Of a stretch of DNA of 64,000 nt, positions 8,006-13,243 are shown piece after piece. Each line of letters begins with the position of its first letter. The first letter of the stretch is position 1. The notes beneath the pieces were generated by a model. The model saw nothing but the letters and a program-made list of their open reading frames with translations. It searched no databases and was not told the origin of the DNA. Source of the stretch: Cupriavidus alkaliphilus (GTDB lineage Bacteria; Pseudomonadota; Gammaproteobacteria; Burkholderiales; Burkholderiaceae). The position numbers were made by a program, and so were the translations under genes. Location: assembly GCF_900094595.1 (NCBI RefSeq), contig NZ_FMAD01000013.1, forward strand, positions 1 to 64,000. The letters are read 5' to 3'.

Positions 8006-8602
8006 ATGCCTGACCCGAACCTCTCTTTCTTTGGCAGGCTCTCGCTTGCCATGGGCACGTTCTTCGCCATCCTTGGCAACCGCGAGCTGGCCGCCGGCAT
8101 CAAGCGCCTGCGCACGGGCGAAACCGCCGCGCAGGCGGCGCCGGCACCGGTGACGGCGCCCGCCCCGGCGCCGGTTGCCGCGCCGGTTGCCGAGCCCGCG
8201 CCCGCGCCCGCGCTGAAGGAAGCCAGCCCGGTGGCCGCGCTGCAATTGCTCGGGCTGCTGCAGCGCGACGCCCGCTTCGTCGACTTCGTCGAGGAAGACA
8301 TCGCGCGCTATGCCGACGCCGAGATCGGCGCCGCCGCGCGCCTGGTTCACGACGGCTGCCGCGCGGTGCTGCGCGAGCATTTCACCATCCGCCCGGTGCG
8401 CGAGGAAGCCGAGGGCAGCCGCGTGACGCTGGCCGATGGCTTCGACGCCAGCGCGATCCGCCTGACCGGCAACGTGGTCGGCAGCGCGCCGTTCCATGGC
8501 GCCATCAGCCATCGCGGCTGGAAGGTCGAGGAAGTGCGCCTGCCGCGCCTGGCCGAACGCCACGACGCCAGCGTGATCGCCCCCGCCGAGGTGGAGCTAT
8601 GA
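8006..8602 (+). CDS. DUF2760 domain protein, Hsp70-linked
   Basis: 198 residues. The N-terminus (about 1-35) is hydrophobic and amphipathic (SFFGRLSLAMGTFFAILG). An Ala/Pro linker follows at about 45-75. The conserved domain (about 78-198) contains ALQLLGLLQRDARFVDFVEED, then GCRAVLREHF and GWKVEEVRLP. This matches the DUF2760 family, which is commonly found next to divergent Hsp70 genes; its biochemical role is unknown. Its stop codon overlaps the start of the next Hsp70 gene (ATGA), so the two are probably translated together and may form a complex. The start is ATG 8006 with AGGAG eight bases upstream; a GTG at 7997 overlaps that ribosome site and is less likely. Confidence 0.82.
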   Translation: MPDPNLSFFGRLSLAMGTFFAILGNRELAAGIKRLRTGETAAQAAPAPVTAPAPAPVAAPVAEPAPAPALKEASPVAALQLLGLLQRDARFVDFVEEDIARYADAEIGAAARLVHDGCRAVLREHFTIRPVREEAEGSRVTLADGFDASAIRLTGNVVGSAPFHGAISHRGWKVEEVRLPRLAERHDASVIAPAEVEL

Positions 8603-10446: not shown

Positions 10447-13243
10447 TCCCGCGGCAGCGGCAATGAAGCAGTACATCGTCGGCATCGACCTTGGCACCAG
10501 CAACACGGTGGTGGCCTACGCCCGGGCCGGTTCCGACGATATCCGCGTGTTCGACATCGACCAGCTGGTCGCGCCGGGCGAGGTCGCGGCCCGCCCCCTG
10601 CTGCCCTCGGTGCGCTATCACGCGGCGCCGGGCGAGCTCAATGGCGATGACCTGCAGCTGCCCTGGCAGTCGGCCGCAAGCGCCGCCGCGCGCCGCACCG
10701 TGTTCGGGCGCCTCGCGGCGACGCTGGGCGCGCAGGTGCCGGGCCGGCTGGTGGCCAGCGCCAAGAGCTGGCTGTCGCATGCCTCGGTCGACCGCACCGC
10801 GCCGATCCTGCCGTGGGGCGGCGAGGAGGATCTCGACAAGATTTCGCCTGTCGTCGCCAGCGCGAGCTATCTCGGCTACGTCTGCGCCGCCTGGAACCAC
10901 CACTTCCCCGACGCGCCGCTCGAACAGCAGGACGTGGTGCTGACCGTGCCGGCCTCGTTCGACGAGGGCGCGCGCGCGCTGACGCTCGAAGCCGCGCGCC
11001 TCGCGGGCCTGCCCGCGCTGCGGCTGCTGGAAGAGCCGCAGGCCGCGCTCTACGACTGGCTGTTCCACCATCGCCACACGCTGGACCAGGACCTTGCGCA
11101 AACCCGCCTGGTGCTGATCTGCGACGTCGGCGGCGGCACCACCGACCTCACCCTGATCCGCGTGGCGATGCAGGACGGGCAGCCGCAACTGACACGCATC
11201 GGCGTGGGCAACCACCTGATGCTCGGCGGCGACAACATGGACCTGGGGCTGGCGCATCAGGTCGAAGCGCGCCTGGGCGACGGCGCGCCGGCGCAGCCCC
11301 GCCTGTCGGCCGCGAGCCTGTCGCAACTGGTGGCGCGCTGCCGCGCCGCCAAGGAGCAGCTGCTGGGCGCGCACGCGCCCGATGCCGTCAACGTGACGCT
11401 GCTCGGCGCGGGCTCCCGCCTGGTCGGTGGCGCGCGCTCGGTGCAGGTGACGCGACAGGAGGTCGAGCAGCTGGTGGTCGACGGCTTCTTCCCCAGGGTG
11501 CCGCCCAGCGAACGGCCGCGGCGCGCGCGCGGCGCCATCGTCGAGTTCGGCCTGCCCTATGCCGCCGATCCCGCGGTGACCCGCCACGTGGCCGCCTTCC
11601 TCGGCCAGCACGCGGCGCAGGCCCGTGCCGCGCTCGGCATGGTGGACGCGCCCGACGACGCGCTCCCGGTGCCCGACACCCTGCTGCTCAACGGCGGCGT
11701 GTTCCGCGCGCAGGCGCTGGCGGACCGCATCGCCGACACGCTTAGCGGCTGGCGCGCCGCGCCGCTGCAGGTGCTGCACAACGCCGATCCCGACATTGCC
11801 GTGGCACGCGGCGCGGTCGCGTATGCGCGCGCACGCGCCGGCCAGGCACCGCGCATTGGCGGCGGCTCGGCGCGCAGCTATTTCCTGGTGCTGGACGACG
11901 GCGCCGCGGGCCGGCAAGGCATCTGCCTGCTGCCGCGCGGCACCGAAGAAGGCCACGAGATCCCGCTCAGCGACCGCACCTTCGCCTTGCGGCTGGGCCA
12001 CCCGGTGCAGTTCCACCTGGTGTCGTCGGTGGCCGAGACGCCTTACCAGCCCGGCGCGCTGACCGACCTGTCCGGCGGCGACTTCGTGCGCCTGCCGCCG
12101 ATCGCCACCGTGGTGCCGACGCGCGGCGCCGGCGGCCCGCGCGAAACGCCGGTGCAGATCACCACGTCGCTGACCGAGGTCGGCACGCTCGAAGTCCACT
12201 GCATCAACACCGGCGATGCCGCGCAGCGCTGGCGCCTCGAGTTCCAGCTGCGCGGCAACGACGCCGCGGCGGCCGCGCCGACGCCAACGGCCCACCCCTC
12301 GCTGCCGCAGGCCCTGGAGTTGATCGACCGCACCTTCGGCGCGCGTTCGCAGGAGGTCGGGCCGAAGGAGGTCAAGCGCCTGCGCGCGCAGCTGGAGCAG
12401 ATCCTGGGCGCGCGCGAGCAGTGGGACAGCGCGCTGCTGCGCGAGCTGTTCGGCGCCTTGTGGGAGCGCGCCAGGCGCCGTCGCCGCACGGCGGACCATG
12501 AGCGCCTGTGGCTGAACCTGGCGGGCTATTGCGTGCGCCCCGGCTTTGGTTACCCGCTCGACGAATGGCGCGTCGCGCAGCTCTGGTCGCAGTACGACCA
12601 GGGCATCCAGTACGTCAACGAAAGCCAGAACTGGTCGGAATGGTGGACGCTGTGGCGGCGCGCCGCCGGCGGGCTGGACGAAAGCGCGCAGCTGCGCCTG
12701 CTCGAAGACATGGCCTTCTACCTGCAGCCGCCGGGCAGCGCGCGCTTCAAGAAACCGTCCGGGCCCACCCGTGGCGGCTATGCCGACATGGTGCGGCTGG
12801 CCGGCTCGCTCGAGCGCCTGCCCGTCGACGCCAAGACCGAGCTGGCCGACTGGCTGCTGACCCGGCTGCGCAAGCCGTCAGAGAACAACCAGGGCTGGTG
12901 GGCGGTGGGCCGCATCGGCGCGCGCATGCCGTTCTACGGCAGCGCGCACAGCGTGGTGCCGGCCGACACCGCCGGCCAGTGGCTGGACGCCATCCTGGCG
13001 CTCGACTGGAAAAAGGTCGAACCGGCCGCGTTCGCCGCGGTGCAGATCGCGCGCATGACCGGCGACCGCACCCGCGACCTGCCCGACGAACCGCGCGCGA
13101 ACGTGGTGCGCCGGCTGGAAGCCGCCAACGCGCCGCCGGGCTGGATCGCGATGGTGCGGGAGGTGGTGGCGCTGGATGCCGCGGACGAAGGACGGGTATT
13201 CGGCGAGGCGCTGCCGGCCGGCCTGAAGCTGATTGCGGGCTAG
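10439..13243 (+). CDS. Hsp70-family protein with C-terminal DUF3731
   Basis: 934 residues. The N-terminal ATPase has GIDLGTSNTVVAYA, then VLICDVGGGTTDLTLI near residue 225 and LLLNGGVFRAQALADR near 420. After a linker at about residue 615, a helical domain of about 300 residues (starting LPQALELIDRTFGARSQEV) matches DUF3731, which replaces the classical peptide-binding domain and lid. It resembles the preceding Hsp70 closely in its ATPase part, so the pair probably arose by duplication. ATG 10439 overlaps the previous gene by eight bases; ATG 10463 gives a more typical Hsp70 N-terminus (MKQYIVGIDLG), and neither has a clear ribosome site. It is the last gene of the sigma-DUF2760-Hsp70-Hsp70 module and is followed by nested palindromes. 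Confidence 0.85.
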   Translation: MPDPAAAAMKQYIVGIDLGTSNTVVAYARAGSDDIRVFDIDQLVAPGEVAARPLLPSVRYHAAPGELNGDDLQLPWQSAASAAARRTVFGRLAATLGAQVPGRLVASAKSWLSHASVDRTAPILPWGGEEDLDKISPVVASASYLGYVCAAWNHHFPDAPLEQQDVVLTVPASFDEGARALTLEAARLAGLPALRLLEEPQAALYDWLFHHRHTLDQDLAQTRLVLICDVGGGTTDLTLIRVAMQDGQPQLTRIGVGNHLMLGGDNMDLGLAHQVEARLGDGAPAQPRLSAASLSQLVARCRAAKEQLLGAHAPDAVNVTLLGAGSRLVGGARSVQVTRQEVEQLVVDGFFPRVPPSERPRRARGAIVEFGLPYAADPAVTRHVAAFLGQHAAQARAALGMVDAPDDALPVPDTLLLNGGVFRAQALADRIADTLSGWRAAPLQVLHNADPDIAVARGAVAYARARAGQAPRIGGGSARSYFLVLDDGAAGRQGICLLPRGTEEGHEIPLSDRTFALRLGHPVQFHLVSSVAETPYQPGALTDLSGGDFVRLPPIATVVPTRGAGGPRETPVQITTSLTEVGTLEVHCINTGDAAQRWRLEFQLRGNDAAAAAPTPTAHPSLPQALELIDRTFGARSQEVGPKEVKRLRAQLEQILGAREQWDSALLRELFGALWERARRRRRTADHERLWLNLAGYCVRPGFGYPLDEWRVAQLWSQYDQGIQYVNESQNWSEWWTLWRRAAGGLDESAQLRLLEDMAFYLQPPGSARFKKPSGPTRGGYADMVRLAGSLERLPVDAKTELADWLLTRLRKPSENNQGWWAVGRIGARMPFYGSAHSVVPADTAGQWLDAILALDWKKVEPAAFAAVQIARMTGDRTRDLPDEPRANVVRRLEAANAPPGWIAMVREVVALDAADEGRVFGEALPAGLKLIAG

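What the first reader, a model, noticed from the sequence alone, without database searches (positions are those of the whole stretch)
8599..13243. Tandem Hsp70 paralogues lacking the classical substrate-binding part
Both retain the ATPase loops, but one ends early and the other ends in DUF3731 instead of the peptide-binding domain and lid. They may work as a heterodimer, with one partner supplying ATP control and the other client contact.
Basis: partly seen in the sequence, partly recalled or inferred. Interest (0 to 1): 0.5.

Follow-up and report, generated by a model that had tools for sequence, protein, structure and literature searches.

The report
Membrane-tethered twin lidless Hsp70 module
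Three neighbouring bacterial genes seem to form an unstudied protein-handling machine: two ATP-driven Hsp70 relatives that keep the client-gripping core but lack the usual lid, plus a probably membrane-attached partner shaped somewhat like the factor that reloads Hsp70 with ATP.

Summary
The tandem Hsp70 paralogues are real (HspA 8599-10446; HspB 10463-13243), follow a DUF2760 gene and keep every ATPase residue checked. In the HspB model it superposes, with the ATPase domain, on ATP-state DnaK/BiP; only the alpha lid is missing, its place taken in HspB by helical DUF3731. DnaK's hydrophobic linker and most J-domain-contact residues are replaced. The unit is DUF2760-HspA-HspB: DUF3731 in 21 and DUF2760 in 22 of the same 299 genomes, 21 shared; all three in this order in 59 of 80 loci from several phyla. 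DUF2760 has an N-terminal hydrophobic helix; its globular part has GrpE as top Foldseek match and as the only fold listed by a second aligner, but weakly and without sequence support. No HspA was found in three assemblies that keep DUF2760+HspB, so an obligate A/B heterodimer is unlikely. Best reading: a membrane-tethered Hsp70 machine independent of J-domains, with a GrpE-like exchange factor. Not shown: nucleotide exchange, client binding, membrane location. Full-text searches for either DUF name found no paper.

The parts
8006..8602 (+). DUF2760 gene (ATG at 8006; upstream in-frame GTG at 7997)
   Evidence: PF10816 E 1.1e-54; many homologues begin at the aligned Met
8021..8077 (+). N-terminal hydrophobic/amphipathic helix of DUF2760 (LSFFGRLSLAMGTFFAILG), putative membrane anchor
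   Evidence: helix 11-27 in model m37b64c6789d6; Kyte-Doolittle 1.49 here, under the usual 1.6; 1.6 or more in 18 of 45 homologues
8123..8227 (+). Ala/Pro-rich flexible linker of DUF2760
   Evidence: sequence; no helix or strand and low confidence (63-76 per block) in the model
8246..8599 (+). globular alpha + beta-wing-like domain of DUF2760 with conserved C-terminal tail APAEVEL
   Evidence: residues 84-201 align to GrpEL1 (Z 5.5, 98 residues, rmsd 5.8); tail conservation
8599..10446 (+). HspA, lidless Hsp70 paralogue, 615 aa; its ATG overlaps the DUF2760 stop
8599..9993 (+). HspA nucleotide-binding domain (residues 1-465)
   Evidence: profile vs DnaK NBD 99.6%, E 6e-24, 354 columns; catalytic residues
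10000..10023 (+). HspA linker GVRIRGGT in place of the DnaK VLLLD linker
10006..10434 (+). HspA C-terminal beta-domain (residues 470-612), SBD-beta equivalent by homology to HspB (HspA itself not modelled)
   Evidence: profile HspA vs HspB 100%, E 2e-41
10048..10089 (+). HspA-specific conserved proline-rich loop (ESSMPAVPGFEPPI) between the first two strands of the beta-domain (strand order inferred from HspB)
   Evidence: A489, P491 and G492 at 100% of ungapped rows in the 78-sequence HspA set; P488, A489, P491, G492, P495, P496 invariant in the 17 sequences of A2
10463..13243 (+). HspB, Hsp70 paralogue with DUF3731, 926 aa (an alternative in-frame ATG lies at 10439)
10463..11842 (+). HspB nucleotide-binding domain (residues 1-460)
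   Evidence: profile vs DnaK NBD 99.7%, E 1.3e-26; structure
11849..11869 (+). HspB linker PRIGGGS in place of the DnaK VLLLD linker
11855..12253 (+). HspB substrate-binding-beta-like sandwich (residues 465-597)
   Evidence: AlphaFold2 model and structural alignment to ATP-state BiP/DnaK
12302..13201 (+). HspB helical C-terminal region (residues 614-913), in place of the lid; DUF3731 itself spans 12491-13231
   Evidence: PF12531 E 7.8e-109; all-helical in the model

Best explanation
DUF2760-HspA-HspB is a self-contained, divergent Hsp70 machine at the cytoplasmic membrane. DUF2760 is held at the membrane by its N-terminal helix and, through a flexible linker, presents a GrpE-like alpha/beta-wing domain to the ATPase domains of HspA and HspB, where it acts as nucleotide-exchange or docking factor. 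Both Hsp70s hydrolyse ATP and couple it to a beta-sandwich of the substrate-binding type, without a classical lid and without J-domain stimulation. HspB uses its helical DUF3731 region as client- or partner-contact module; HspA is a lidless partner that some lineages do without. The clients are probably membrane or stress-damaged proteins. Shown here: gene module, intact catalytic residues, beta-sandwich fold (predicted model of HspB), loss of the lid, replacement of the linker motif and of most J-domain contacts. Inferred: membrane location, nucleotide exchange by DUF2760, client binding, J-independence, roles of HspA and DUF3731, stress role.
For: Module: DUF3731 in 21 and DUF2760 in 22 of the same 299 genomes, all 21 shared; order DUF2760-HspA-HspB in 16 of 17 fetched loci and, on one strand, in 59 of 80 loci of several phyla; DUF2760 present in 12 of 12 genomes chosen, out of 17 such loci, because HspA was not found near HspB. 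ATPase residues invariant. HspB model superposes on ATP-state DnaK/BiP through SBD-beta (5e84 Z 34.2, 472 residues, rmsd 4.1; 4b9q Z 32.7, 469 residues, rmsd 4.0). J-domain contact residues named in PMC8215388 are mostly changed: R167 to T in 56 of 78 HspA, Q378 to Y (76 of 78; 69 of 92), L392 to Gly (78 of 78; 88 of 92), D393 mostly to T, S, I, A or L. One J-domain gene in 80 loci (1.41 Mb), against a J hit beside DnaK in 30 of 30 control loci. DUF2760: Foldseek rank 1 of 350,542 chains is GrpE; the four entries listed by VIA-align with Z >= 2 are all GrpE, though phmmer finds only 7 distinct GrpE sequences among 177,635 in the PDB copy. N-terminal helix with transmembrane-level hydrophobicity in 18 of 45. 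MXAN_5323, probably an HspB by length (925 aa, as in the Myxococcus dinghuensis ORF of L094) and NBD-only domain class: its deletion lowers sporulation and H2O2 survival, and it does not replace E. coli dnaK at 37 degrees (PMC8265645).
Against: DUF2760-GrpE similarity is weak in structure (Foldseek E 0.23, probability 0.33, no match at E 0.001, the other 41 matches unrelated proteins; VIA Z 4.6-5.5, rmsd 5.8-6.3) and absent in sequence: profile scores equal shuffled controls, no GrpE hit in Pfam up to E 1, none in the PDB sequence search up to E 10. The cleft salt bridges whose loss makes HscA release ADP by itself (K55-E267, R56-E264; PMC8215388) are missing in most of these proteins too, so an exchange factor might not be needed. 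The window's own HspB, like 40 of 92 HspBs, keeps Arg at R167; E217 is kept in 23 of 78 HspA; D211 is uninformative (gapped in 22 of 30 DnaK). In 27 of 45 DUF2760 proteins, the window's included, the N-terminal helix is below the usual transmembrane threshold. Nothing here shows client binding. MXAN_5323 was not compared by sequence; its deletion did not affect growth at high or low temperature or high osmolarity, swarming, predation or fruiting-body formation.
Confidence: 0.4

Rival explanations
1. DUF2760 is a membrane-bound docking or client-delivery adaptor (taking the place of a J-protein) rather than a nucleotide-exchange factor; its GrpE resemblance is a coincidence of a small helix-plus-beta-wing shape.
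For: Profile tests against GrpE are negative; Z 5.5 is within the range that the aligner's notes call common for unrelated models; cleft salt bridges are mostly lost, as in Hsp70s that need no GrpE (PMC8215388); the conserved extreme C-terminal tail APAEVEL could be a docking peptide, although the model makes it a strand.
Against: The rank-1 match among 350,542 chains and every listed second-aligner row being GrpE, itself an Hsp70 partner, is an unlikely accident for a protein encoded beside Hsp70 genes.
Confidence: 0.3
2. HspA and HspB form a functional heterodimer, in the manner of Hsp110-Hsp70, one acting as exchange factor or regulator of the other, with DUF3731 embracing the partner (closest to the first reader).
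For: Pairing and order in 59 of 80 loci; HspA is one clade with support 97 and both families span largely the same phyla; Hsp110 acts on Hsp70 through an NBD-NBD interface (passage in PMC12987570).
Against: Both partners keep all catalytic residues checked; no HspA was found in 3 of 12 assemblies that keep DUF2760+HspB side by side, apparently lost twice.
Confidence: 0.2
3. The proteins are not chaperones but nucleotide-switched membrane scaffolds or regulators using the actin/Hsp70 fold.
For: Loss of lid, linker motif and most of the J-site; weak MreB Pfam matches below cut-off.
Against: Sandwich domain and docked ATP-state architecture match Hsp70 in the HspB model.
Confidence: 0.08

Closest known systems
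DnaK / BiP (canonical Hsp70) in the ATP-bound, docked state
   Same: ATPase domain with all catalytic residues checked; beta-sandwich docked to it in the HspB model
   Different: no SBD-alpha lid; linker VLLLD replaced by I(R/G)GG(T/S); most J-domain contacts and the cleft salt bridges replaced
HscC with tail-anchored DjlB/DjlC (PMC8215388, passages)
   Same: a specialised Hsp70 thought to work at the plasma membrane with its own membrane-anchored partners; HscCs also have an insertion in loop L1,2 and most lack the cleft salt bridges
   Different: HscC has a lid and J-domain partners; here the partner is DUF2760, in which no J-domain was detected, and there are two Hsp70s
GrpE / GrpEL1 nucleotide-exchange factor
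   Same: DUF2760 residues 84-201 align to GrpEL1 104-213, which reaches the C-terminal beta-wing
   Different: no significant sequence similarity; a hydrophobic helix and flexible linker precede the domain
Hsp110 / Sse1 with Hsp70
   Same: two Hsp70 relatives, one with a larger helical C-terminal part; Sse1 structures are among the Foldseek matches of HspB (ranks 45 and 48)
   Different: both partners have the DnaK catalytic set; HspB is kept in assemblies where no HspA was found
MXAN_5323 of Myxococcus xanthus (PMC8265645)
   Same: 925 aa, annotated with the Hsp70 NBD domain only; the Myxococcus dinghuensis HspB ORF (mechanical start) is also 925 aa
   Different: identity as HspB was not tested by sequence; the parts of the paper read do not mention DUF2760 or an HspA partner

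Membership tests
Hsp70 superfamily (PF00012) | Hsp70 nucleotide-binding domain with catalytic residues | tested here: met
   64.3 and 66.6 bits against a cut-off of 20.6; residues invariant; profile E 6e-24 and 1.3e-26
Hsp70 superfamily (PF00012) | substrate-binding beta-sandwich after the NBD | tested here: met
   by predicted structure of HspB and by homology for HspA; the sequence profile test against DnaK SBD-beta alone was negative
Canonical Hsp70 of the DnaK/HscA/HscC types | SBD-alpha lid | tested here: not met
   HspA ends right after the beta-domain. For HspB it is inconclusive: structural alignments stop at residue ~600 and DUF3731 shows no profile match to the DnaK lid, but a remote lid homologue there is not excluded
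Canonical Hsp70 of the DnaK/HscA/HscC types | hydrophobic interdomain linker (VLLLD) | tested here: not met
   I-R-G-G-T in the window's HspA, I-G-G-G-S in HspB; no Leu among the residues listed (up to five commonest) at L390, L391 and L392 in either family
J-domain-dependent Hsp70 | DnaK residues that contact the J-domain (R167, Q378, L391, D393, P419, D477, E206, D211, E217) | tested here: not met
   changed in most sequences, but R167 is kept in 40 of 92 HspB (the window's included), E217 in 23 of 78 HspA, D211 is uninformative, and P419/D477 lie where the alignment is unreliable
DUF3731 (PF12531) | Pfam gathering score | tested here: met
   363.7 bits against 25
DUF2760 (PF10816) | Pfam gathering score | tested here: met
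   183.9 bits against 25
GrpE (PF01025) | sequence profile match | tested here: not met
   no Pfam hit up to E 1; hhalign scores equal shuffled controls
GrpE (PF01025) | short alpha-helical domain plus beta-wing fold | tested here: inconclusive
   GrpE is Foldseek rank 1 (E 0.23) and the only fold listed with Z >= 2 (Z 4.6-5.5)
GrpE (PF01025) | nucleotide-exchange activity as a dimer | not testable with these tools
   needs biochemistry or complex prediction

The most novel reading that the evidence does not exclude
A further type of bacterial Hsp70 machine beside DnaK, HscA and HscC: two lidless Hsp70s that work without any J-domain protein and are driven and placed by a membrane-anchored, sequence-unrecognisable GrpE-like exchange factor (DUF2760), with DUF3731 as a new kind of client or lid module, spread over several phyla.
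Probability: 0.27. Interest if true: 0.78.

Novelty: new variant of a known kind. Interest (0 to 1): 0.52.

Why it matters
A 2021 review names three types of prokaryotic Hsp70 (DnaK, HscA, HscC) and describes J-domain partners for them (PMC8215388, passages). This module would be a widespread Hsp70 system built without the lid, the hydrophobic linker or most of the J-docking surface that are treated as central to Hsp70 allostery. It gives a natural test of which parts of Hsp70 are needed for ATP-coupled client handling, and turns two unnamed domain families (DUF2760, DUF3731) into testable chaperone parts.

Tried and rejected
Sequence proof that the C-terminal domain is SBD-beta: hhalign of HspA and HspB C-domains against an alignment of 30 DnaK SBD-beta domains (a narrow alignment, Neff 1.7) gave 0.3% and 0.1% probability, no better than three shuffled and one reversed control each. 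The claim therefore rests on the predicted structure.

Sequence proof that DUF2760 is GrpE: by eye the tail (FD..., HRGW, APAEVEL) recalls the GrpE wing (FDP, QKGY, RPAxVxV), but profile tests were negative in full length (score 10.4, 60 shuffles with mean 13.0, maximum 22.9) and for the wing alone (49, 95, 51 and 95 of 100 shuffles score as high or higher under the four settings tried). I treat the motif as a lead only. A profile search of PDB sequences with DUF2760 up to E 10 found two FlaA chains and no GrpE.

Recurrent neighbours beyond the three genes: none stood out; ORF clusters found in 4 or more of the 80 loci (at most 11) lie at scattered distances and strands (many loci have less than 10 kb of flank). 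One locus (L070) has a J-domain gene upstream; not pursued.

Does DUF3731 have a known fold? HspA was not modelled; its fold is inferred from HspB. VIA-align's top row for HspB (9a5j) and its 9a81 row for DUF2760 are integrative models, not experimental structures. Other GrpE entries of the PDB (1dkg, 3a6m, 8gb3, 9qid) are not among the rows listed for DUF2760.

Tree: HspA is one clade (97) but HspB is not resolved as one, so which of the two is ancestral stays open (quick method, SH-aLRT only, two very long outgroup branches, own_L005 and own_L006, whose placing is unsure).

Numbering slips: one search picked wrong reading frames for some DnaK genes and was redone; one search used the wrong offset for DnaK positions after about 185, and those rows are superseded. 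In the substrate-binding part of the joint alignment (P419, D477, pocket residues) the alignment is unreliable.
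Full report
OBSERVATION. The window is part of a 6.1 Mb genome. 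On the + strand lie a DUF2760 gene (ATG 8006, stop 8602), HspA (8599-10446, 615 aa, its ATG overlapping the DUF2760 stop) and HspB (10463-13243, 926 aa; another in-frame ATG at 10439). Pfam gives Hsp70 at 64.3 and 66.6 bits (cut-off 20.6), DUF3731 at 363.7 bits in HspB (677-923) and DUF2760 at 183.9 bits. HspA and HspB are 42% identical from the first residues to 612/599, so they share the whole core and differ by the extra helical C-terminus of HspB. Besides these the genome has a DnaK, an HscA and two further genes with short Hsp70 matches (the names DnaK and HscA follow and from recall), three J-domain matches, one of them under the family's cut-off, and one GrpE; none of these lies in this module.

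ATPASE. In a joint alignment with 30 DnaK sequences, the equivalents of D8, T11, K70, E171, D194, G196-G198, T199, D201 and K270 are present in all 78 HspA and all 92 HspB sequences, apart from one gapped row per family at D8 and T11. Neither partner looks inactive. Two features depart from DnaK: E267 is Arg in 74 of 78 and 86 of 92, and K55 is Arg in 74 of 78 and 82 of 92 (Ala in the window's HspB); R56 and E264 are also mostly changed (E264 is still Glu in 26 of 92 HspB). So the cleft salt bridges K55-E267 and R56-E264, described in PMC8215388 (passages read), are absent in most.

SUBSTRATE-BINDING PART. Sequence profiles of the C-terminal domain match each other (100%, E 2e-41) but not DnaK SBD-beta (at chance level). 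The AlphaFold2 model of HspB, built on an alignment of 68 sequences, has pLDDT 88.9 and pTM 0.88. Foldseek's best matches are full-length ATP-state DnaK (4b9q, E 5e-24), with BiP chains close behind. VIA-align gives for ATP-state BiP 5e84 Z 34.2, 472 residues, rmsd 4.1, model 1-596 against chain 26-528, and for DnaK 4b9q Z 32.7, 469 residues, rmsd 4.0, model 3-597 against 2-506. Rows that take in the sandwich align over 460-476 residues; rows with the ATPase domain only over 347-372 (50 rows shown). So roughly 100-120 residues of the sandwich are matched to SBD-beta in the docked position. The alignments stop at about residue 600, so the lid (DnaK 507-605) is not matched; from 614 to 913 HspB is all helices. 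HspA ends at the sandwich. HspA carries a conserved proline-rich loop between the first two strands (ESSMPAVPGFEPPI; A489, P491 and G492 at 100% of ungapped rows), where DnaK has its L1,2 loop (position inferred).

LINKER AND J-SITE. DnaK's VLLLD linker becomes I-R-G-G-T in HspA and I-G-G-G-S in HspB. PMC8215388 (passages) reports that alanine at the hydrophobic linker residues or D393 abrogates or greatly diminishes linker stimulation of the ATPase, and that the J-domain contacts L391, R167, Q378, P419, E206, D211, E217 and D477. R167 is Thr in 56 of 78 HspA (Arg in 5) but still Arg in 40 of 92 HspB, the window's included; Q378 is Tyr in 76 of 78 and 69 of 92; D393 is mostly T, S, I, A or L; E206 is kept in 5 of 78 and 13 of 92, E217 in 23 of 78 and 12 of 92; D211 is uninformative, being gapped in 22 of 30 DnaK. 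A J-domain profile built from three J-domains of the own genome hit one gene in 80 loci (L070), against 30 of 30 DnaK control loci. Inference: the pair does not work with J-domains in the DnaK way; the case is stronger for HspA than for HspB.

MODULE AND SPREAD. DUF3731 occurs in 21 of 299 genomes of the phylum sample and DUF2760 in 22 of 299, the window's genome included; all 21 have both. The 22nd, G026, has DUF2760 and an Hsp70 match near the low end of the same contig. One other genome of the same genus in the sample (G255) lacks both. Of 17 fetched loci, 16 show DUF2760, HspA and HspB in order (L048 is cut by a contig end, its DUF2760 on another contig). All three genes are present in 59 of 80, always in this order and on one strand; 17 lack DUF2760 and 17 lack HspA in the stretch held, several of them short contigs. 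Whole-assembly searches of 12 of the 17 without HspA found DUF2760 in 12 of 12 and HspA in 9 of 12, in two of these nine (G301, G309) only as contig-edge pieces. In two Desulfobacula and one Bryobacterales assembly no HspA was found and HspB stands directly behind DUF2760 (in G306, Terriglobia, it does so too, but an HspA lies on another contig). The three HspBs sit inside clades that include members with HspA (SH-aLRT only). I read this as two losses of HspA, with the reservation that these are metagenome assemblies.

DUF2760. Its N-terminal part is a hydrophobic helix: transmembrane-level hydrophobicity (Kyte-Doolittle >= 1.6) in 18 of 45 and >= 1.0 in 36 of 45; no globular part reaches 1.6. 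In several of the clear transmembrane cases shown in the alignment basic residues follow the helix (not counted), which would put the globular part in the cytoplasm (positive-inside rule, recalled). A flexible linker leads to a domain of helices and short strands ending in the conserved tail APAEVEL. Foldseek's first match among 350,542 chains is GrpE (4ani_B, E 0.23, probability 0.33); the other 41 matches with E up to 10 are unrelated proteins. VIA-align, over 319 chains, found 7 with Z >= 2; the four entries listed are all GrpE or GrpEL1 (9blt Z 5.5, 9bls 5.4, 9a81 4.6, 4ani 4.6; 98-99 residues, rmsd 5.8-6.3). phmmer finds only 7 distinct GrpE sequences in the PDB copy. The matched part reaches the C-terminal beta-wing; PMC12987570 and PMC11685456 (passages) place the ATPase-domain contacts of GrpEL1 in its short helices and beta-wing. 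But the values are weak and sequence tests are negative, so I do not file DUF2760 as GrpE; I say only that it may work like it.

FUNCTION. In PMC8265645 (abstract, whole Results section and passages read), Myxococcus xanthus MXAN_5323 is a 925-aa protein with the NBD-only Hsp70 domain. The HspB ORF of Myxococcus dinghuensis is also 925 aa with a mechanically chosen start (L094); that genome gives 18 Hsp70 match rows. The match is by length and domain class, not by sequence. The mutants of MXAN_5323 and of three other noncanonical hsp70 genes sporulate less and survive H2O2 less well; they are normal in fruiting-body formation, swarming, predation and growth under heat, cold or high osmolarity, and the genes do not restore growth of an E. 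coli dnaK mutant at 37 degrees. In the window a PCMT (isoaspartyl repair) gene follows the module and a sigma-70 gene precedes it; neither was seen as a recurrent neighbour in the 80 loci (clusters of four or more loci).

LITERATURE. Full-text searches of 5.39 million open papers for 'DUF3731' and 'DUF2760' gave 0 papers each, and 'DnaK-related protein' with Hsp70 gave 0. Broader searches (listings of 15 of 26, 10 of 11, 9 of 9 and 12 of 65 papers) showed no title or abstract start that describes such a module. Subscription papers and preprints are not held. PMC11019930 was read as abstract and outline only.

VERDICT. The strongest new points are the three-gene module, the replaced linker and most of the J-site, and the possible GrpE-like membrane partner. 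The mechanism is a hypothesis at about 0.4.

Noticed in passing
window 13319-14101 (+): A protein-L-isoaspartate O-methyltransferase (PCMT) with a hydrophobic N-terminal stretch follows the module 75 bases downstream on the same strand; a protein-repair enzyme next to a chaperone module, but not seen as a recurrent neighbour.
   Followed up: partly
window 5854-7968 (+): A full sigma-70 factor (regions 1.1 to 4) ends 37 bases before the DUF2760 ATG. The simple sigma-70 consensus scan found no promoter between 5500 and 13600.
   Followed up: partly
window 8347-10506, 10331-12499, 12878-15820 (-): Very long antisense open frames (719, 722 and 980 aa) opposite the module; likely a by-product of high G+C codon usage.
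   Followed up: no
L069: Cupriavidus sp. UYMMa02A carries the module with the reading frames broken into overlapping pieces, possibly sequencing errors.
   Followed up: no
L070 2844-3458 (+): The only J-domain gene found near a module, 645 bases upstream of DUF2760 in a Competibacteraceae assembly.
   Followed up: no
L085 7382-8011 and L089 7297-7995 (+): In these Vibrionaceae DUF2760 proteins the linker after the transmembrane helix is a VEK/VEKIVEV-type repeat instead of Ala/Pro.
   Followed up: no
window 14138-16558 (+): An 806-aa protein with a spermine/spermidine synthase domain in its middle, flanked by hydrophobic stretches.
   Followed up: no
G302 and G311 genomes: Myxococcota genomes carry many Hsp70-like genes (15 matches of the HspA profile in G302, 18 Hsp70 match rows in G311), several on long open frames.
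   Followed up: no
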